64,000 nucleotides of DNA from Halomarina pelagica (lineage in GTDB: Archaea; Halobacteriota; Halobacteria; Halobacteriales; Haloarculaceae): positions 372,001-436,000 of the forward strand of contig NZ_CP100455.1 in NCBI RefSeq assembly GCF_024228315.1, given 5' to 3'. Made by a program: the position numbers and the translations under genes. Positions 42,690 to 51,406 of the stretch are shown here, piece by piece (the first letter of the stretch is position 1; each line of letters starts with the position of its first letter). Below the pieces are notes generated by a model. That model was given only the letters and a program-made list of their open reading frames with translations. It searched no databases and had not been told where the DNA came from.

Positions 42690-43394
42690 ATGACCGACGT
42701 TGCGCGGGAACGCGAGGCGATCGTCGCCGCCGTCGATCGGATCGCCGACCGACTCGCCGACGAGAAGGCGTACCTGACCGAACTCGACTCGGCGATCGGC
42801 GACGCCGACCACGGGACGAACGTGAGCCGCGGCTTCGGGGCCGCGCGGGAGGCGGTCGTCGAGGCGGACGACGCGAGCGCGGAGGACCTCGTGAAGACCG
42901 TCGGCATGACGCTCGTCTCGGAGGTCGGCGGCGCGGCGGGCCCGCTGTACGGCGGGTCGTTCATGCACGCCAGCGGGGAACTCGAGGAGGGGGTCACCGC
43001 CGCGTCCACCGTCGCGTTCGGGGAGGCGTTCCTCGAGAAGGTGCGGGATCGAGGCGGAGCCGAGGTGGGCGCGAAGACGATGGTCGACGCGATCACGCCG
43101 GCGGTCCACACCTACAAGAAGTCGATCGAGCAGGACGACCTGCCGCCGCTTGCCGCGCTCGCGAAGGCCGTCGACGCCGCCGAGCGCGGCGTGGACTTCA
43201 CGCTCCCGATCCGGGCGACCAAGGGCCGGGCGTCCTACCTCGGCTGGCGGTCGGTCGGCCACCAGGACCCCGGCGCGACGAGCACGCTCTTCATCTTAGA
43301 GGAGATCCACGCGACCGCGGAAGAGTACCTGAACGGGGAGGGCGAGCGGGACGCCAGTTCCCCATCGACGCCCGACGACGGGGAGGGCGAGTAG
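42690..43394 (+). CDS. dhaL: Dihydroxyacetone kinase subunit DhaL
   Basis: The 234-residue ADP-binding subunit; its nucleotide is not exchanged but re-phosphorylated by DhaM. The Mg ligands lie in DSAIGDADHGTN (Asp33, Asp38, Asp40), close to the bacterial positions. GGAAGPLYGGSF and GRASYLGWRSVGHQDPGA are also conserved. It starts 52 bases after dhaK and abuts dhaM. Confidence 0.95.
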   Translation: MTDVAREREAIVAAVDRIADRLADEKAYLTELDSAIGDADHGTNVSRGFGAAREAVVEADDASAEDLVKTVGMTLVSEVGGAAGPLYGGSFMHASGELEEGVTAASTVAFGEAFLEKVRDRGGAEVGAKTMVDAITPAVHTYKKSIEQDDLPPLAALAKAVDAAERGVDFTLPIRATKGRASYLGWRSVGHQDPGATSTLFILEEIHATAEEYLNGEGERDASSPSTPDDGEGE

Positions 43395-43772
43395 ATGGTC
43401 GGCGTGCTCGTCGTCTCCCACAGCCGACGCGCGGCGGAGGGGATCGTCGAGGTGGCGGCGGAGATGGCCGGCGACGTCGCCATCGCTGGGGTGGGGGGCG
43501 ACCCCGACGGCGGCATCGGGACCAGCGCGCCCGCGATCGGCGAGGCGCTCGACGGCCTCGACGACGACGCCGTCGTCGTGCTCGTCGATCTCGGGAGCGC
43601 GGTGATGAACGCCGAGATCGCCATCGAATCCTACGACGGCGAGGCGATCATCGCGGACGCGCCGGTGCTCGAGGGGGCGGTCAACTGCGCCGTCGAGGCC
43701 GGTTCGCCGAAGGCGACCCTCGAGTCCGTGCGCGAGGCCGCGGAGGCGGCAGGCGACGTCGCAAAGCTCTGA
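43395..43772 (+). CDS. dhaM: PTS-type phosphocarrier subunit DhaM
   Basis: A 125-residue EIIA-mannose-type domain. His9 in MVGVLVVSHSRRAAEG is the expected phosphorylated residue, and GGIGTSA plus LVDLGSAVMNAE match the domain. It is a single-domain DhaM, without the HPr and EI-like modules that some bacteria fuse to it, so a separate EI and HPr must supply the phosphate. Its ATG directly follows the dhaL stop. Cells with this triplet need PTS components elsewhere in the genome. Confidence 0.93.
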   Translation: MVGVLVVSHSRRAAEGIVEVAAEMAGDVAIAGVGGDPDGGIGTSAPAIGEALDGLDDDAVVVLVDLGSAVMNAEIAIESYDGEAIIADAPVLEGAVNCAVEAGSPKATLESVREAAEAAGDVAKL

Positions 43773-44080
43773 ACGCTGATCCGATGGCCGTTCCGTCGTA
43801 CACGTAGCCGACGCTCGGGGCGTCGAGTCACAGGTGGGGAGCGTCGAGGGCGATCCCATGGGGTACCCGCTCGCCCTCGACCGCTCGCGTATTCGAGATT
43901 CGAGACCGCGTACTTCAGCGTGACGGTATGCGGTCGGTACGCCGGGTACCGCGGACGACGTCGAACGCGGCCGACCTCCGCCCTTCGACGGCGCTACTCC
44001 CCGTAGGCGTCGAGCAGTTCCCACTCCTCGCGCATCAGCGCGCGGACCCCTCGACCACCGACGCCGAGGCCGGAACTGGC
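43773..44080. other. Intergenic region between dhaM and the HAD gene
   Basis: About 310 bases. An open frame continuous with the HAD gene begins at 43928, but its first 51 codons look non-coding. I see no other gene, and no strong terminator. Confidence 0.4.
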
Positions 44081-44758
44081 ATGGCGGACCGAACCGCAGG
44101 TGTAGGCGTGAGCCGATTTCGCGCGGTCCTGTTCGACATGGACGGGGTGCTCGTCGACTCCGAGGACCACTGGAACCGGGTGTGGCGCGAGGAGGTGTTC
44201 GCCCGCGTCGAGGAGGGGGAGCCGACCCTGGCGGAGGTGACCGGGCGCAACTACCGCGAGAGCCTCGCCGAGATCGACGAGGCCTACGGTCTCCCCGGCG
44301 GTCCCGAGCGCTTCGAACGCCGGTTCGAGACCGCCGCGGACGCCGTCTACGGCGAGGCGGTGTCGCTCACGCCGGGCGTCCCCGACCTCCTCGACGCACT
44401 CCGGGAGCGGGGCCTCGCCGTCGGCGTCGTCTCCTCGGCACCCGAGGCGTGGATCCGAACGGTCGTCGGACGCTTCGACCTCGACCCCCTCGACGTCGTC
44501 GTGAGCGCGGAACACCTGGACGGGCCGGGGAAGCCCGCCCCGGGGATCTACGAGCGCGCGGCCGACGCGCTCGGGGTCGCCCCGGACGACTGCGTCGTGA
44601 TCGAGGACTCCGAGAACGGCGTCAGGGCGGCGGCGCGGGCGGACGCGACGGTTGTTCGCTTCCGCCGCGGCGGCGACGCGGCCCCCACGCCCGGAACCGA
44701 CGCGATCGCCGCCGACCCCGCGGAACTCCGCGGGACGCTCCTCGATCTGGTCGGCTGA
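44081..44758 (+). CDS. HAD-family phosphatase (beta-phosphoglucomutase-like)
   Basis: A 225-residue HAD hydrolase of subfamily IA. Motif I is LFDMDGVLVDSEDHW with the nucleophile Asp19 and Asp21 acid/base, the DxD arrangement of phosphatases. A helical cap follows (about 30-95). Motif II is GVVSSAP, motif III contains the Lys of GPGKPAPGIYERAA and motif IV is CVVIEDSENGVRAA. The substrate is a phosphorylated small metabolite, not identifiable from sequence. ATG 44081 is used; a GTG at 44108 is possible. Confidence 0.85.
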   Translation: MADRTAGVGVSRFRAVLFDMDGVLVDSEDHWNRVWREEVFARVEEGEPTLAEVTGRNYRESLAEIDEAYGLPGGPERFERRFETAADAVYGEAVSLTPGVPDLLDALRERGLAVGVVSSAPEAWIRTVVGRFDLDPLDVVVSAEHLDGPGKPAPGIYERAADALGVAPDDCVVIEDSENGVRAAARADATVVRFRRGGDAAPTPGTDAIAADPAELRGTLLDLVG

Positions 44759-44862
44759 CGGACCCGGCGGCCACGGGGGGTAGTCGAGGTCCGCGGCGGG
44801 CGAACGAGTACGTACCTTGTGAACATGTATTATGACGGGAGGCGTCGTACTTCCCTCGAACC

Positions 44863-45678
44863 ATGGCGGAGGAGAGTTCACTCGAGGGTGCGGTATCGAT
44901 CGTGACGGGCGCGGGCGGACAGATCGGCGAGGGGATCGCGCTCGAACTCGCGGGGGCCGGGAGCGACGTGGTCGTCGCGGACGTGAACGCCCTGGAGACG
45001 GAGTACAACCAGCAGTCCTCGCGCGAGGTCGGCGGCGCGACGCGGGCGCAGGAGGTGGCCGACCGCGTGGAGGAGCGGGGACGGCGCGCGCACGTCGTCG
45101 AGTGCGACGTGACGAAGGACGACCAGGTCCGGGCGATGGTCGAGGAGACCGTCTCCGAGTTCGGTCGGCTCGACGTCCTCGTCAACAACGCGGGGATCAT
45201 CACCGTCGCCCCGGTCGAGGAGATGGCGGAGGAGGAGTGGGACTCCGTGATGGACGTGAACGTGAAAGGGGTGTTTCTCCCCTCGCGGGCGGCGATCCCG
45301 CACCTGCGGGAGTCCGCCGGGAGCATCGTCAACACCGCCTCCATCGCGGGGAGCATCGGGGCGGCGGGCCTCGGGCACTACTGCGCCTCGAAGCACGCCG
45401 TCCTCGGGCTGACGAAGTCGCTCGCGCTCGAACTCGCGCCCGACAACGTGACGGTGAACGCCATCTGTCCGGGGATCGTCGACACGCCGATGTGGGAGCG
45501 GGTGCTGACGCCGACGCTCGAGGAGTCCTACGAGGAGACGGTGGAGCGCGTCATCCCGCTCGGGCGCGACCAGACCCCCGAGGACATGGGTCGACTCGCC
45601 GTCTTCTACGCGACGAACCGGAACGTGACCGGTCAGGCGCTCGCGGTCGACGGGGGGATCCTCCAGAACGTGATCTGA
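44863..45678 (+). CDS. Short-chain dehydrogenase/reductase
   Basis: A 271-residue SDR. The cofactor motif is TGAGGQIGEG (about 15-24), with Asp at the end of the second strand (VVVADV) suggesting NAD preference. NNAGI, the catalytic Ser in NTASIAGS, and YCASK (about 167-171) are all present. Between strand 2 and helix 3 is an insert (NALETEYNQQSSREVGGAT region), longer than in the common SDR. Close relatives include ketoreductases and sugar or polyol dehydrogenases. A role with dhaKLM in polyol metabolism is only an inference from location. Confidence 0.87.
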   Translation: MAEESSLEGAVSIVTGAGGQIGEGIALELAGAGSDVVVADVNALETEYNQQSSREVGGATRAQEVADRVEERGRRAHVVECDVTKDDQVRAMVEETVSEFGRLDVLVNNAGIITVAPVEEMAEEEWDSVMDVNVKGVFLPSRAAIPHLRESAGSIVNTASIAGSIGAAGLGHYCASKHAVLGLTKSLALELAPDNVTVNAICPGIVDTPMWERVLTPTLEESYEETVERVIPLGRDQTPEDMGRLAVFYATNRNVTGQALAVDGGILQNVI

Positions 45679-46214: not shown

Positions 46215-46943
46215 ATGCCCGCGCCCGACGAACAGTCCGACGTCGAGTCGTTCGAGCGGCCCGAAGCGTCGTTCGCCAGGACGCTCGAACGACTCAAGCG
46301 CGAGGGCTGTTCGGTGCTCGTCTGTGGTACCGTAGCGGCGGAGATCCGCGCGAAGATGACCCGCCAACTCTTCGGATCGACGGAGATGTACCGACGGCGG
46401 ATCCTGGGGCACACGGGTACCACGGCGCTCGATCCGGACGCGTACCTCCCGGCCGAACCGCCATCGGACCGTCACGCCGTCGTCGTCTCGCGGGCCGGTC
46501 CCGTTCGGGCGAGCGACACGAGCGGGGTGGTCGACGTCGCCCGCGCCGTGTCCGAGTACCACCCCAGCGGCGGGAGCGGCGGTTCGCTCGACGAACTCGA
46601 CGCGCTGGGTACCGCGCTCGCGGGTGCCGTCGACGAGGTCGCCGACCGCGATCACCTATCGCCGGGCGTCCTCCGTGTCGGCGTGACCTCCCTCGAACCG
46701 TACCTCGACGCGGACGGCGTCGAGGAGGTGGTCCGGTTCGTCCGAACGGTCGCCGCCCCCGTCCACGAGGACGGCGGGATGCTCCACGTCCACGTTCCGC
46801 TTTCGCACGACGACGCCCGCGTTCGTGCGCTCCTGCCCTACTTCGACGCCCGAATCGACCTCCGGGTCCACGAACCGCTCCCCCCGGAGTGCCGGTGGTA
46901 CCTCCCGGCGATCGACGAGCAGACCACGTGGATGCGGCTCTGA
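46215..46943 (+). CDS. DUF7504-type haloarchaeal protein
   Basis: A 242-residue soluble protein related to the small RecA/KaiC-like or MEDS-like proteins annotated as DUF7504 in haloarchaea (family name from memory). It has CSVLVCGTVAAEIRAKMTRQLFG near residues 30-52, RRRILGHTGTTA, and a C-terminal half with LRVGVTSLEPYLD, VHVPLSHDDARVRALLPYFDARIDLRVHE split over about 195-225. No intact Walker A is visible, so nucleotide binding is not shown. The start at 46215 suits the TATA-like element at 46181. Only 12 bases separate it from the CHAT gene, which indicates one operon. Confidence 0.7.
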   Translation: MPAPDEQSDVESFERPEASFARTLERLKREGCSVLVCGTVAAEIRAKMTRQLFGSTEMYRRRILGHTGTTALDPDAYLPAEPPSDRHAVVVSRAGPVRASDTSGVVDVARAVSEYHPSGGSGGSLDELDALGTALAGAVDEVADRDHLSPGVLRVGVTSLEPYLDADGVEEVVRFVRTVAAPVHEDGGMLHVHVPLSHDDARVRALLPYFDARIDLRVHEPLPPECRWYLPAIDEQTTWMRL

Positions 46944-46955
46944 GGCGAACGTTGG

Positions 46956-49085
46956 ATGAAGGACGCGCTACGGATCGTCGGGACGGATGATCCCCCAGGT
47001 GTGTGTATCGTCGACGACGTACAGGGCGTACAGACGCGACTCGCCCTCCCGACGGTGCCCACCCTCGAGCCATGTTCGGCCGATCGGTTCGCCTTTCCGA
47101 TCGATGCGGCCGTTCGGCTCGACGCGACGGAGGTTCGCGTCCCCCACCTCGTGAACGTGATCGTCAGGGACGCGGACGCGACGATCGTCGCCGAGGTGGC
47201 CAACAGGGGACGGGCCGCGATCGAGTACGGCAGCTACACCGTCGAGATCCACTCGCTGAGCGTCGTGACGTACCTCCACGTCGAGGGTCGGCTGGTCGTC
47301 GGGGCCGACGGCGGCGAGCGAGTCATCGCGGTCGGTGACGGGGGACACGTCCGCCTCGGCGTGCGCTCGCGGCACGAGCACCCCGCGGCGACGGTCACGA
47401 CGACGGCGGATCCGGTCGACGTGATGCGGGCGCTGTCGACGCTCGGATCGGCGCTGAAGACGACGTCGCCGGAGCGGTCGTGGCCCTCGCTCCGGGGCCA
47501 CCCGCCGTTCGTCGAACTCGGCGACCGCCTCGACGGGCCGTCGGCGCTCCTCGATCGGGAGTACACGACGACGCTCGAACTCCCGCCGACGTTCGAGTAC
47601 GTCTTCCCGGCGTCGTCGCTCGCGTACTACCTCGACGCGGAGGTGCGGCCGGGGGAGACCCCCAGACTGTTGCTCGACGGCTCCGCCTACGATCTCGAGG
47701 CCGAGGTCGACTACGAGACGGCCGTCCACCGGACGCTCCGGCAGGTTTTCCTGCTCGACTGCGTCACGCGCACCGAGGGGTACTATCCGGTCGAACTGGA
47801 CGTCCGCGCCCGCCTCGAACGGCGACTCGATCTCGACTTCGCCGACCTCTACGACCGGCCGTTGGCCGATCGGACCGCGGCGTACCTCGACGTCCCGTTC
47901 GAGGCGCTGGCCGACGAACTCCCGACGTGGAAGCAGACGGCGGACGTCGCACCGACCGCCGAGCACGTCGCGTTCCTCCCGATCCTCGCGGCCGATCTCG
48001 CGCTCGTTCGGTGTCCGCCCGTTCGCAGTCCGTCCGAGGCCGAGGTTCCGGCGGCCATCGCCGACTTCTTCCGCACGGAGAGTCGTCGAACCGATCCCGC
48101 GTCGGTGCTGGTGCGCGACGCCGGGCGGGTCCCCCGGACGCGGCAGGGCGAGGACGCCGCGGCCGATCGGATCGTCGTCCCGCCGCCGTCGGAGACGATC
48201 GAGCACACCTGGATCGGCGACGGGTATCCGGTGACCGCCTCGAAGCCGACCATCGACGCCTGCAAGCGGCGGCTGGCGGCGAAACCGAGCGGGAGCATCG
48301 AGGTCGCCGTCGTCTCGAACTCCCCGGAGATGCGCGCCGAGAACGACGTCAGCGACTACTACGGCCTCCGCGAGTTCGTCGAGTTCGACGTGGCACTCTA
48401 CGAGGACCTCACGCGCGACGAACTTGCGGCCCTGTTCGCGAGCGGGCTGGACTTCGTCCACTACGTCGGCCACGTCGACGAGCGGGGGATGCAGTGTTCC
48501 GACGGCTACCTCGATGCGGGGACGCTGGACGCGGTCGAGACGCGCGCGTTCGTCCTGAACGCCTGCAACTCCTACGAGCAGGGGATGCGACTCGTGCACG
48601 CCGGCTCGATCGCCGGCGTCGTGACGGCCTCGAGGGTGGCGAACGACCCGGCCACGCGGGTCGGACGGACCCTCGCCCGCCTGCTCAACGCCGGGTTCTC
48701 CCTCGCCGGCGCGCTCGACATCGTCAGCACGGCCACCGTCACCGGCCAGCAGTACGGTGCCGTCGGGGACGCGCAACTCGCGCTGACCGACAGCGCGGGC
48801 GGGACGCCGATCATGGCCGATCTGGATCGACGGGCGGACGGTCGATACGACGTGTGTATCAGGGGCTATCCGACACCGAGGGTCCCCCTCGGGACCCTCT
48901 ACACGCCGTACGTCGGGAACAACGAACGGCGGTACCTGAACTCCGGTCGGATCGCGGAGTTCACCGTCACGAGGTCGCAACTCGAGGAGTTCCTCACGCT
49001 CGAACGCTTCCCGGTGCGGTACGGAGACGCGCTCCGGTGGAGCGATCGGCTTCTGGCGGACGGGTTCGAATTAGACGCAGAATGA
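46956..49085 (+). CDS. CHAT-domain (caspase-like) protein
   Basis: A 709-residue protein. About residues 1-440 are a haloarchaea-specific region without a motif I recognise, rich in beta-strand patterns. Residues about 445-630 form a CHAT-type peptidase domain: VAVVSNSPEMRAE, then DFVHYVGHVDERGM with His502 and His506, and AFVLNACNSYEQG with Cys537, giving the His/Cys dyad of caspase-fold proteases. GVVTASRVANDPATRVGR follows. The C-terminal 80 residues contain LYTPYVGNNERRYLNSG. It is downstream of a DUF7504 gene and convergent with a tiny membrane-peptide gene. Caspase-like proteases paired with small membrane proteins act in several prokaryotic death or defence systems; whether this one does is inference. 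Confidence 0.8.
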   Translation: MKDALRIVGTDDPPGVCIVDDVQGVQTRLALPTVPTLEPCSADRFAFPIDAAVRLDATEVRVPHLVNVIVRDADATIVAEVANRGRAAIEYGSYTVEIHSLSVVTYLHVEGRLVVGADGGERVIAVGDGGHVRLGVRSRHEHPAATVTTTADPVDVMRALSTLGSALKTTSPERSWPSLRGHPPFVELGDRLDGPSALLDREYTTTLELPPTFEYVFPASSLAYYLDAEVRPGETPRLLLDGSAYDLEAEVDYETAVHRTLRQVFLLDCVTRTEGYYPVELDVRARLERRLDLDFADLYDRPLADRTAAYLDVPFEALADELPTWKQTADVAPTAEHVAFLPILAADLALVRCPPVRSPSEAEVPAAIADFFRTESRRTDPASVLVRDAGRVPRTRQGEDAAADRIVVPPPSETIEHTWIGDGYPVTASKPTIDACKRRLAAKPSGSIEVAVVSNSPEMRAENDVSDYYGLREFVEFDVALYEDLTRDELAALFASGLDFVHYVGHVDERGMQCSDGYLDAGTLDAVETRAFVLNACNSYEQGMRLVHAGSIAGVVTASRVANDPATRVGRTLARLLNAGFSLAGALDIVSTATVTGQQYGAVGDAQLALTDSAGGTPIMADLDRRADGRYDVCIRGYPTPRVPLGTLYTPYVGNNERRYLNSGRIAEFTVTRSQLEEFLTLERFPVRYGDALRWSDRLLADGFELDAE

Positions 49086-49114
49086 GGCGCGTGACTTCGA
49101 TTTCTCAGGTAACT

Positions 49115-49264
49115 TTACGGGCCAGTGTTCGAACTCCCCGCCGCGGCGAGGACGGACTGCGCCTGCGCGAGGAGCACGAGCGTCGTGAACAGGACGCCGG
49201 TCATCTTGGGGTGGTCGGCCAGGTACGTTGCGATCGTCGAGCCGCTGGTGTCCATCTCGGACAT
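49115..49264 (-). CDS. DUF7503-type small membrane peptide
   Basis: A 49-residue peptide: a polar N-terminus MSEMDTSGSTIATYLADHPK, one membrane helix (MTGVLFTTLVLLAQAQSVLAA) and a short GSSNTGP tail. The layout, with 'Y-L-A-(D/E)-x-P-(K/R)-M-x-G-V-L-F', matches the tiny haloarchaeal proteins annotated as DUF7503 (from memory), which often lie beside DUF7504 genes. A start six bases upstream (49270) is possible. It converges with the CHAT gene with about 30 bases between stops, and an AT-rich promoter region (49271-49345) precedes it. Confidence 0.75.
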   Translation of the reverse strand: MSEMDTSGSTIATYLADHPKMTGVLFTTLVLLAQAQSVLAAAGSSNTGP

Positions 49265-49270
49265 ACACAT

Positions 49271-49345
49271 TTCTATTCGACACTATCTCATTAAAATTAT
49301 CTTATTTAATTATAAGTTTTAGAGTTTAATTTTACTCACTTGTGC
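49271..49345 (-). promoter_or_regulatory. AT-rich promoter region of the small membrane peptide
   Basis: A run of almost only A and T in otherwise GC-rich DNA directly before the peptide start, with several TATA-like options on the minus strand (AATTAAATAAGATAAT near 49300). Exact box assignment is not possible by eye. Confidence 0.4.
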
Positions 49346-49466: not shown

Positions 49467-49643
49467 TCATCGAGTCCGCCGTTCGAGCGCCCGCGCGAGG
49501 ATCGTGTCCGCCACTACGACGCCGATCCAGATCAACGCCCAGACGGCGACGACCGCCGCGATCAACAGGAGCCAATGTAACTCCCCCGGGAGAGGGGAGC
49601 CGCTCGCGTGCAGGACGCCCGGGTCGATCGCCGGCGCGGTCAC
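49467..49643 (-). CDS. Small membrane protein coupled to DUF2243
   Basis: A 58-residue protein with one strong membrane helix (LHWLLLIAAVVAVWALIWIG, about 22-41) and a basic C-terminus (RALERRTR). It starts at a GTG that overlaps the stop of the DUF2243 frame (GTGA). This coupling supports it as real and as part of the same former operon, whose upstream gene is now interrupted by an insertion element. Confidence 0.6.
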   Translation of the reverse strand: MTAPAIDPGVLHASGSPLPGELHWLLLIAAVVAVWALIWIGVVVADTILARALERRTR

Positions 49644-50008
49644 CCGGACTCGCCCTCCGACCGTCCGGTTCGGTAGACGTACGCCCCGGCCGCGACGATG
49701 AGCAGGCTGATCACCGCCCAGTGGGGGTCGTAGTACCCGGGACCGTCCGTCGCGTGGTGCAGGCCCAGCAGCGTGTGGTTGACGACTACGTCGAACAGGT
49801 CGAAGACGCCCAGGCCGATCACCGCCGCGCCGGCGATCGGTCGCATCGGGAGCGGGGCGGCGGTTCGGCGCTCCGCCCGCCAGAGGAGCCCGCCGCCGAT
49901 CCCCGCCACGACGAGCATCGCGACGGAGAAGAGGCCGTCGGCGAGGAGGTTCGTTCGAAGTCCGTCCACGGTCGACGTCGGGTAGATCCCGGAGACCAGG
50001 TGGTGGAG
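49640..50008 (-). pseudogene. DUF2243 membrane protein, C-terminal fragment
   Basis: In-frame sequence from about 50008 reads LHHLVSGIYPTSTVDGLRTN, then LLADGLFSVAMLVVAGIGGG, LGVFDLFDVVVNHTLLGLHH and a last helix, which is the body of a DUF2243 protein (three membrane helices with conserved His). There is no proper start: upstream the frame enters the end of the IS1341-type element and meets a stop. The matching N-terminus is found on the other side of the element at 51554-51649. A GTG at 49969 could allow a shortened product. Confidence 0.75.
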
Positions 50009-50152
50009 GTAAACTACCCCACCCTACTCCCTCGGCGCTCCGCGCCTCGGTTCGTTGAGGGTGGGACCACCGACGGAACTCTGTTCCGTCGAGGCCTCGA
50101 AAGACGCGTTGTGTCTTTCGGTGGCTTTGATGTGGACTCCCGGCAAGAGTCA
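50009..50152 (-). ncRNA. Candidate omega/right-end guide RNA of the tnpB element
   Basis: The region downstream of tnpB folds into successive stems: CGAAAGAC/GTCTTTCG (50098-50120), a perfect nine-base stem CGACGGAAC/GTTCCGTCG (50071-50091) and GGCGC/GCGCC (50034-50046). In IS605-group elements the RNA from this end, reading on into flanking DNA, guides TnpB. By that model the guide here would come from the DUF2243 flank just left of 50009. Predicted from position and folding only. Confidence 0.4.
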
Positions 50153-50180
50153 CCAGCCAATTGGCTGGTGACTCTTGCCG
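50141..50180. repeat. Perfect 40-base palindrome over the tnpB stop
   Basis: Two 20-base arms with no spacer, centred between 50160 and 50161. The last codons and stop of tnpB lie inside it. It could act as a terminator, a block to readthrough, or part of the guide RNA scaffold. Confidence 0.9.
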
Positions 50181-51406
50181 TTCAACGTCCCACCATTCAC
50201 ACGCACGTCTACTTGTGCGTCTCCGCTCCCCGACTTGGGCGAGGAGCGGAGTTTATGGGTTCGCTTTCGAACGTACCGCGTCCCGATGTTCTTCGCGGCG
50301 TTGTAGTCCGCGTTGACCTCGTACCCGCACTTCTGGCAACAGAAGTGTTCCCCGTGGCGGTTGTCCTCGTGCGTGAACCCACAGTCCGTCCGAGAACAGC
50401 GTTGGGACGTATGGTTCGGTTCGACTTGTTCCACGGAGACACCGCGTTCTGGGGCCTTGTAGGAGACATACTCGAATAGGCGTCGAAACGCCCAGACGTG
50501 GTGCCACTTTGCGTGTGGAAGCCGCTCTCGAATGTTGGTCAAATCCTCGAACACGAGTACGTCGCAGTCGTGTTCGACGGCTTCCGAAACGAGTTCGTTG
50601 GCGACGGTGTAGATGTACTGTTTCCGCCATGCTTCTTCGCGTTTGCCGAGGTGAAGCAGAGCGTTGTGCGCGGCTTGTGTTCCGCGCTGTTGCATCTCTC
50701 CACGTCGCTTCTCGAACTCGCGACACCAATGGTCGTAGTCGTCTCCCTGCCAGAACGTGCCGGTCGAAGCGACGGCGAGACTGTTGACGCCGAGGTCGAT
50801 ACCGAGGACTGTTTGGTGTTCAGTATCTGCCGAAATCTCTGCGTCGTCACCACCGTCTCCTTCGGAGTCGTACTTCCGCGTGGTAATGTGGAAGTAGAAC
50901 TCGTCGTCCACTGCGTCGTACTGGAGCGTGCTTGCACGGAAATCGAACTCCTCGGACAGCACGTACTGCTCGTATGGCGTTGGGCTGTTCGAGGGAAGTT
51001 TAAAGTCACACTCGACGCGACCGTTAACAGTCGAGAGCGAGACTTTGTTCCGGTAGAACGTTGCGCTCCGCTTGTCGTAGAGCATACTCCACGACGTGAA
51101 CTCCGGTTGGCTCACTCGCTTTCCGTTCTTCCACCGTTCGACGCATCCTTTGACGGCTTGGACGGCGCGTCGGATGGCTTCTTGAACAAGGTTCGCGGTG
51201 AGGTCGGTTTCGTCGCGTAGTTCGTCGTAGAGAGCGTTTCGTGCGGTCGTGTTGGCCGTGACGCACTCGGTGTAGGAGTCGTCGGACCAACAGAACTCGG
51301 CGGCACGGTTGGCGCAGTGAAGGAATTGCCGGGCGGATTCGTGGAGGTCGTCGCGTCGCTCGTCTGGAACGACGAGTTTGACGGGTGCGGTACGCCGGAC
51401 CTCCAT
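50150..51406 (-). CDS. tnpB: RNA-guided endonuclease TnpB (IS1341 type)
   Basis: A 418-residue TnpB, full length for the family. The RuvC-like nuclease residues are all present: Asp204 in GIDLGVNS, Glu287 in VFEDL and Asp367 in NADYNAAKNIG. The zinc-finger insert has Cys337, Cys342, Cys357 and Cys360. The N-terminal wedge and RNA-binding region (about 1-190) is complete, with RWKNGKRVSQPEF. TnpB proteins use a guide RNA from the element end to cut matching DNA, which helps the element persist. Codon use is less GC-rich than in neighbouring host genes, which fits a mobile origin. The catalytic set suggests it is active. Confidence 0.93.
   Translation of the reverse strand: MEVRRTAPVKLVVPDERRDDLHESARQFLHCANRAAEFCWSDDSYTECVTANTTARNALYDELRDETDLTANLVQEAIRRAVQAVKGCVERWKNGKRVSQPEFTSWSMLYDKRSATFYRNKVSLSTVNGRVECDFKLPSNSPTPYEQYVLSEEFDFRASTLQYDAVDDEFYFHITTRKYDSEGDGGDDAEISADTEHQTVLGIDLGVNSLAVASTGTFWQGDDYDHWCREFEKRRGEMQQRGTQAAHNALLHLGKREEAWRKQYIYTVANELVSEAVEHDCDVLVFEDLTNIRERLPHAKWHHVWAFRRLFEYVSYKAPERGVSVEQVEPNHTSQRCSRTDCGFTHEDNRHGEHFCCQKCGYEVNADYNAAKNIGTRYVRKRTHKLRSSPKSGSGDAQVDVRVNGGTLNGKSHQPIGW

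What the first reader, a model, noticed from the sequence alone, without database searches (positions are those of the whole stretch)
46215..49264. DUF7504 + CHAT protease + tiny membrane peptide cassette
Sequence shows three tightly packed genes: a DUF7504-type protein, 12 bases later a 709-residue protein with a caspase-like His/Cys pair (His502/His506 and Cys537), and, convergent 30 bases on, a 49-residue peptide with one membrane helix. Family knowledge: CHAT/caspase-fold proteases are effectors or activators in prokaryotic death and defence modules, sometimes cutting a membrane partner. Inference: the protease may process or control the membrane peptide on a signal sensed by the DUF7504 protein. 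The first 440 residues of the CHAT protein have no motif I recognise and could be the sensor.
Basis: partly seen in the sequence, partly recalled or inferred. Interest (0 to 1): 0.78.

Follow-up and report, generated by a model that had tools for sequence, protein, structure and literature searches.

The report
Haloarchaeal caspase-fold protease with partner peptide
Almost every salt-loving archaeon carries a caspase-like protease gene whose end abuts, tail to tail, a tiny gene for a peptide ending in Gly-Pro, and the evolution of that pair suggests the last nine residues of the peptide, not its membrane helix, are the working part.

Summary
The window holds a DUF7504 protein (PF24336), a 709-aa CHAT (caspase-fold) protein with an intact His506/Cys537 dyad, and a convergent 49-aa DUF7503 peptide (PF24335). 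CHAT and peptide form a conserved pair: among loci selected by CHAT similarity, 74 of 84 CHAT genes have a convergent DUF7503 gene (median stop-to-stop gap 0 nt), and in a 391-genome class sample all 335 DUF7503-positive genomes are CHAT-positive. DUF7504 is a looser partner: a RecA/KaiC-fold protein that has lost its Walker A motif.

New finding: in one haloarchaeal genus (12 genomes), 9 replace the helix-anchored peptide with a soluble protein made of 2-14 copies of its C-terminal tail. Synonymous differences far outnumber replacements. So the 9-residue GxxxxxxGP tail is the conserved functional element and the membrane helix is dispensable.

Best explanation: a cognate protease-peptide pair in which the CHAT protein recognises the tail as substrate or regulatory ligand. 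No biochemistry was possible, and the direction (cutting versus being regulated) is unresolved. A death or defence role is not supported. The family is a candidate for the orphan caspase-like activity of Haloferax volcanii.

The parts
46215..46943 (+). DUF7504 protein, 242 aa; degenerate RecA/KaiC-fold domain without a Walker A motif
   Evidence: PF24336 4.9e-37; profile of 53 homologues hits KaiC in PDB sequences at 9e-5; AF2 pLDDT 87.2, VIA Z 14.4 to KaiC 7s65_A over 176 residues; sequence shows VLVCGTVAAEIRAK, not GxxxxGK[ST]
46956..49085 (+). CHAT (caspase-fold) protein, 709 aa
46968..47402 (+). N-terminal beta-rich region of the CHAT protein (residues 5-149), barely tested by the fold search
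   Evidence: AF2 secondary structure; VIA rows span mainly residues 324-612
48201..48791 (+). active caspase-fold domain (residues 416-612)
   Evidence: VIA Z 18.5 to gingipain RgpB (240 aligned, from residue 325), 17.9 separase, 16.6 SAVED-CHAT (168 aligned, residues 443-612), 14.4 Craspase TPR-CHAT
48459..48473 (+). HYVGH motif; His502 codon 48459-48461, catalytic His506 codon 48471-48473
   Evidence: invariant in 65-member alignment A2; H506 in 141 of 144
48564..48566 (+). catalytic Cys537 codon in the LNAC motif
   Evidence: invariant in A2; C in 140 of 143
49115..49264 (-). DUF7503 peptide gene, 49 aa: N-terminal HPK motif, one hydrophobic helix, 9-residue tail ending Gly-Pro
   Evidence: PF24335 1.4e-18; convergent homologue beside 74 of 84 CHAT genes
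49139..49201 (-). hydrophobic helix of the peptide (about residues 22-42)
   Evidence: max 19-mer hydropathy 1.80; 78 homologues mean 1.71 for the best 18-mer, K/R 2.09 before versus 0.10 after the helix
49118..49144 (-). C-terminal 9-mer AAGSSNTGP, the conserved functional element; Gly-Pro in all 78 canonical peptides aligned (a set chosen to end GP; one homologue, L086, lacks it)
   Evidence: multiplied 2-14 times in genus g51
49265..49330 (-). AT-rich promoter region of the peptide gene (own promoter, inferred)
   Evidence: AT 0.65 in the 70 bases before DUF7503 genes versus 0.38 before CHAT genes; CGAAAA-TTATAT-like elements in Haloferax orthologues

Best explanation
A cognate protease-peptide pair. 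The CHAT protein is a soluble caspase-fold cysteine protease. Its dedicated partner is the C-terminal nine-residue element GxxxxxxGP carried by the small convergent gene. The usual carrier is a single-helix membrane peptide; in one genus it is a soluble multi-copy protein. The CHAT protein most likely recognises this element directly, as a substrate that it cuts out of the precursor or as a peptide ligand that switches the protease on or off. The nearly constant tail length (9 residues in 66 of 78), the conserved Gly-Pro and the variable middle, conserved between close relatives, suggest a specificity tag for each protease-peptide pair. DUF7504 is probably a non-ATPase RecA/KaiC-fold adaptor used by many but not all copies. 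Shown: the anatomy, conservation of the dyad, linkage, nesting of distribution, dispensability of the helix, protein-level selection on the tail repeats. Inferred: direct binding, proteolytic activity, direction of control, and the role of DUF7504.
For: Convergent DUF7503 within 400 nt of 74 of 84 CHAT genes, stops abutting (gap -4 to +2 nt in most), none on the same strand. All 335 DUF7503-positive genomes carry CHAT and none of the 26 CHAT-negative ones has DUF7503, hypergeometric P about 2.5e-25 without correction for phylogeny. Dyad invariant. Fold matches to gingipain, separase, SAVED-CHAT and Craspase. In genus g51 (12 genomes) 9 have a helix-less precursor of 2-14 copies of the tail unit and 3 keep the helix form; the two forms are interspersed on the CHAT tree, and a helix-form tail SNGGGISGP nearly equals the repeat unit GNGGGISGP. 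Within arrays pairwise codon differences are 758 synonymous to 105 replacement; between genomes the unit positions GN and GISGP show only synonymous change, replacements sit at unit positions 1, 2, 4, 7 and 8. Tail similarity tracks CHAT similarity (r 0.50). Distant CHAT paralogues in genus g60 also have convergent small proteins with Gly-Pro at or near the C-terminus.
Against: No binding or cleavage was measured, and no complex could be modelled. The charge pattern predicts that the tail of the helix form faces outside, while the CHAT protein has no clear signal peptide or membrane helix, so direct contact would need cleavage and re-import, an inverted topology or contact through the N-terminal segment. 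Part of the CHAT family (about ten type-B genes on one branch, and L106/L107) has no detected peptide yet keeps the dyad. The tail-CHAT correlation is expected from common descent alone, and the helix-CHAT correlation is similar (0.47).
Confidence: 0.5

Rival explanations
1. Peptide-signalling pair: the helix acts as a signal sequence, the 9-mer is released outside after the V/A-x-A motif, returns through an oligopeptide transporter and binds the CHAT protein, much as streptococcal SHP peptides act on Rgg or PatX on HetR.
For: V or A at -3 in 70 of 78 and A or G at -1 in 75 of 78 just before a tail that is 9 residues long in 66 of 78; N-in charge pattern; tail variable but conserved between close relatives; multi-copy precursors in g51. 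Group III shp genes lie downstream of rgg in convergent orientation and mature SHPs are 8-9-mers (PMC3679016). PatX needs export and a C-terminal hexapeptide is active (PMC12756182).
Against: Nine g51 genomes lost the helix, so export by Sec would be lost; no signal-peptide predictor was run; no transporter linkage was looked for; CHAT is not a known peptide receptor.
Confidence: 0.22
2. Pseudosubstrate inhibitor: the tail sits in the CHAT active site and holds it inactive, as securin does with separase; release or degradation of the peptide unleashes the protease on another target.
For: Separase is among the closest folds (Z 17.9); the peptide gene has its own AT-rich promoter; many tail copies would raise avidity.
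Against: Some CHAT genes lack any detected peptide but keep the dyad; topology problem as above; nothing shows inhibition.
Confidence: 0.15
3. Death or defence module: the protease cuts the membrane peptide to make a pore or kill the cell on infection.
For: Caspase-fold proteases do this elsewhere (family knowledge); the helix form is a small membrane protein.
Against: Found in 365 of 391 genomes of the class sample, no PADLOC match, no phage-collection match; helix lost in nine genomes while the tail is kept and multiplied.
Confidence: 0.06
4. Antisense control: abutting stops make the two mRNAs overlap, and the small transcript regulates the CHAT mRNA; the peptide is secondary.
For: Conserved tail-to-tail layout with median gap 0 nt.
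Against: The peptide is under protein-level constraint: codon-position differences 0.416/0.354/0.574, repeat arrays 758 synonymous to 105 replacement. In the window the gap is 29 nt and in some loci over 100 nt.
Confidence: 0.05

Closest known systems
TPR-CHAT/Csx29 with Csx30 (type III-E Craspase)
   Same: CHAT fold with His/Cys dyad, tandem caspase-like arrangement in the alignment, a dedicated protein partner that is the substrate (PMC10028731; VIA Z 14.4)
   Different: No CRISPR effector or TPR detected; partner is a 49-aa peptide, not a large protein; no activity shown
Separase-securin and gingipain R
   Same: Closest folds: RgpB Z 18.5, separase Z 17.9
   Different: Remote by sequence (8-15% identity); different N-terminal region; partner unrelated
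SHP/Rgg (group III) and other RRNPP-type peptide systems
   Same: Small hydrophobic precursor with a short C-terminal active segment, gene convergent with its partner (PMC3679016)
   Different: Partner is a CHAT protein, not a TPR transcription factor; archaeal; soluble multi-copy variants
PatX/HetR, with the CHAT protein HetF in the same pathway
   Same: Small precursor with N-terminal export helix and short C-terminal active motif (PMC12756182); HetF is a putative CHAT protease (PMC8406250)
   Different: PatX acts on HetR and is processed by PatP, not shown to involve HetF; tail motif RGTGR versus GP
Pfam DUF7503 and DUF7504
   Same: Window genes are members
   Different: No paper in the library searched; the CHAT link, tail conservation and multi-copy form are not described there as far as could be checked
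Caspase-like activity of Haloferax volcanii (orphan enzyme)
   Same: Caspase-type activity reported in a haloarchaeon, with Archaea said to lack caspase homologues (PMC3615174); DUF7503 and DUF7504 ring in H. volcanii and other Haloferax species carry the CHAT pair
   Different: No experiment links that activity to this family; substrate preference of the CHAT protein is unknown

Membership tests
CHAT (PF12770) caspase-fold proteases | sequence profile match | tested here: met
   20 of 65 family members match, best 2.1e-5; the window protein alone does not at E<=1
CHAT (PF12770) caspase-fold proteases | caspase fold in the C-terminal half | tested here: met
   VIA Z 16.6 to SAVED-CHAT, 18.5 gingipain, 17.9 separase
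CHAT (PF12770) caspase-fold proteases | catalytic His and Cys at the motif positions | tested here: met
   H506 and C537 invariant in A2; exceptions only fragments or broken ORFs
CHAT (PF12770) caspase-fold proteases | peptidase activity | not testable with these tools
   needs biochemistry
TPR-CHAT (HetF/Csx29 type) | tetratricopeptide repeats | tested here: inconclusive
   no TPR among Pfam hits of 65 members; N-terminal part beta-rich in the model
DUF7503 (PF24335) | profile match above cut-off | tested here: met
   66.6 bits, cut-off 27
DUF7504 (PF24336) | profile match above cut-off | tested here: met
   128.6 bits, cut-off 27
RecA/KaiC ATPases | RecA-like fold | tested here: met
   Foldseek KaiC 1.3e-5, VIA Z 14.4
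RecA/KaiC ATPases | Walker A motif GxxxxGK[ST] | tested here: not met
   window sequence VLVCGTVAAEIRAK; absent from consensus of A3
Caspase-gasdermin death operons | gasdermin-type pore-forming partner | tested here: not met
   partner is a 49-aa single-helix peptide with only a DUF7503 hit
RRNPP/SHP-Rgg peptide signalling | adjacent small hydrophobic precursor with short C-terminal segment | tested here: met
   anatomy and linkage; activity of the segment not shown
RRNPP/SHP-Rgg peptide signalling | TPR-domain intracellular receptor | tested here: not met
   partner is a caspase-fold protein without a Pfam TPR hit
RRNPP/SHP-Rgg peptide signalling | secretion, maturation and re-import of the peptide | not testable with these tools
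   needs mass spectrometry and genetics

The most novel reading that the evidence does not exclude
An archaeal peptide-communication or peptide-control system present in most haloarchaea: diverse GxxxxxxGP nonapeptides, each paired with its own caspase-fold protease, made either from a membrane precursor or from a multi-copy polyprotein.
Probability: 0.25. Interest if true: 0.92.

Novelty: new variant of a known kind. Interest (0 to 1): 0.74.

Why it matters
Haloarchaea show strong caspase-like activity without a known gene. This family puts an intact caspase-fold protease in 365 of 391 genomes sampled and gives it a dedicated micropeptide partner. The helix-to-multi-copy switch is a natural experiment that points to nine residues as the functional part, so the idea can be tested with short synthetic peptides in a genetic model, Haloferax volcanii.

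Tried and rejected
Defence reading: no PADLOC hit for any of the three proteins and no hit to the CHAT protein in the phage collection; set aside, though absence from a library does not exclude it. Obligate three-gene cassette: rejected, since DUF7504 is beside only part of the CHAT genes. Membrane helix as the essential part: rejected by the g51 replacements. Solved-structure relatives by sequence: none for the CHAT profile at E<=10. NCBIfam: nothing credible. Fold search for the CHAT N-terminal region: barely tested, no conclusion. Literature: no paper on DUF7503 or DUF7504, none for 'CHAT domain' with 'haloarchaea' in the library searched; Makarova 2019 on archaeal conflict systems not held. 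A Pfam hit for the upstream neighbour of the L008 paralogue: none. The E. coli, viral-contig and metagenome collections were not searched.

Full report
Observation. DUF7504 (46215-46943 +) scores 128.6 bits against PF24336; the 709-aa protein (46956-49085 +) follows after 12 bases; the peptide (49115-49264 -) is DUF7503, PF24335, 66.6 bits. The gap between the convergent genes is 29 nt.

What the large protein is. The window protein has no Pfam match of its own, but 20 of 65 relatives match CHAT, best 2.1e-5. An AlphaFold2 model from that alignment has mean pLDDT 89.1 and pTM 0.90. Its second half matches gingipain RgpB (Z 18.5, 240 residues), separase (17.9), SAVED-CHAT (16.6) and Craspase TPR-CHAT (14.4). 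H502, G505, H506, N535, C537 and S539 are invariant in 65 sequences. In the wider set H506 is kept in 141 of 144 and C537 in 140 of 143; all but fragments or broken ORFs keep both. Proteolysis itself is inferred, not shown. The N-terminal beta-rich region was barely tested by the fold search.

What the first gene is. A profile of 53 DUF7504 sequences hits KaiC at 9e-5, and the model (pLDDT 87.2) has the RecA/KaiC/Rad51 fold (Foldseek 1.3e-5, Z 14.4). The Walker A motif is missing, so it is unlikely to be an ATPase (inference). DUF7504 occurs in 391 of 391 genomes of the class sample, usually in several copies.

Linkage. The genome itself has five CHAT paralogues. Four have a convergent DUF7503-like peptide and two have DUF7504 just upstream. 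In 80 named haloarchaeal loci, 74 of 84 CHAT genes have a convergent DUF7503 gene within 400 nt and none has one on the same strand. The median stop-to-stop gap is 0 nt. DUF7504 is upstream in 49 and downstream of the peptide in 16. These loci were chosen by similarity to the window's CHAT family, so the fraction applies to that family. In all loci in hand, 99 of 122 CHAT genes have a nearby convergent ORF ending Gly-Pro versus 34 of 1202 other long ORFs. In the class sample CHAT is in 365 of 391 genomes and DUF7503 in 335; every DUF7503 genome also has CHAT (lists compared by eye). The P value of 2.5e-25 ignores shared ancestry. Outside the class, only four related genomes of about 240 had the CHAT family, without a Gly-Pro peptide partner.

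The peptide. Seventy-eight canonical peptides share [HN]P[RK], a hydrophobic helix, a V/A-x-A motif and a tail of 9 residues (66 of 78) ending in Gly-Pro; the set was selected to end GP, and one further homologue (L086) lacks it. Codon-position differences (0.416, 0.354, 0.574) fit a coding sequence. The 70 bases before the gene are AT-rich (0.65 versus 0.38 before CHAT genes), with TATA-like elements in orthologues.

The natural experiment. In genus g51, 12 genomes could be read at this locus. Three keep the helix form. Nine have a soluble precursor at the same place, with a similar start (MSE.DSGTV in several) and the same 4-nt overlap with the CHAT stop, but with the helix gone and the tail unit repeated 2 to 14 times (one array is partly masked). 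The two forms are interspersed on the CHAT tree, though several nodes there are weakly supported. Within the six arrays analysed, pairwise codon differences are 758 synonymous against 105 replacement. Between genomes, the G-N and G-I-S-G-P positions of the unit show no replacements in those six, and changes fall mainly in the spacer and in two G/S positions; two other arrays read GAVSGP instead of GISGP-type ends. Two further genomes (G239, G266) have divergent peptides that end GP, including two 29-mers sharing only LDGSSSPYTGP. In genus g60, with 10-12 CHAT paralogues, most have a convergent single-helix small protein with Gly-Pro at or near the C-terminus. The tail, not the helix, is therefore the element that evolution preserves.

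Mechanism. I favour a cognate protease-peptide pair in which the CHAT protein recognises the tail. Whether it cuts the precursor, is switched by the free peptide, or is held inactive by it cannot be decided here. The charge pattern puts the tail of the helix form outside the cell, which favours release and re-import, or cleavage by another enzyme; the g51 form argues that a cytosolic tail also works. The residue before the unit is Asp in nearly all repeats and Ala in most helix forms; that this marks a change of cutting enzyme is speculation. The signalling reading has parallels in SHP/Rgg group III (PMC3679016) and PatX (PMC12756182).

Known or new. The two DUFs exist in Pfam without function, and no paper on them was found in the library searched. 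CHAT proteases with dedicated partners are known (Csx29/Csx30, PMC10028731). A near-universal archaeal CHAT family with a tail-to-tail micropeptide and a multi-copy variant is, as far as could be checked, new. H. volcanii extracts have strong caspase-like activity with no gene assigned in the paper read (PMC3615174), which makes this family a candidate and no more.

Limits. Loci are related by descent, so counts are not independent. Some contigs end near the genes. No complex was modelled and no activity measured.

Noticed in passing
window 50150-51406 (-): TnpB-like gene (Cas12f1-like_TNB, E 5.8e-21) about 0.9 kb beyond the peptide gene.
   Followed up: partly
window 49640-49969 (-): DUF2243 membrane protein that lacks the first 38 profile positions; another frame overlaps at 49467-50153, so it may be truncated or frameshifted.
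   Followed up: partly
window 42690-45678 (+): Dihydroxyacetone kinase parts (Dak2 domain, EIIA-man), a HAD hydrolase and a short-chain dehydrogenase upstream of the cassette.
   Followed up: no
L138-L155 (genomes G124, G346): Genus g60 has 10-12 CHAT paralogues per genome with diversified small proteins, some with a Cys-bracketed hydrophobic stretch (L114, L127), and a few broken CHAT copies.
   Followed up: partly
L130-L133: CHAT relatives in four genomes of one family outside the class, without a Gly-Pro peptide partner; one (L132) has lost the dyad.
   Followed up: partly
L108, L109, L111, L112, L115-L121: CHAT branch without any detected convergent peptide but with an intact dyad; its partner, if any, is unknown.
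   Followed up: partly
L009 6203-7882 (own genome, C1:534714-536318): Short CHAT paralogue (558 aa) without peptide or DUF7504.
   Followed up: no
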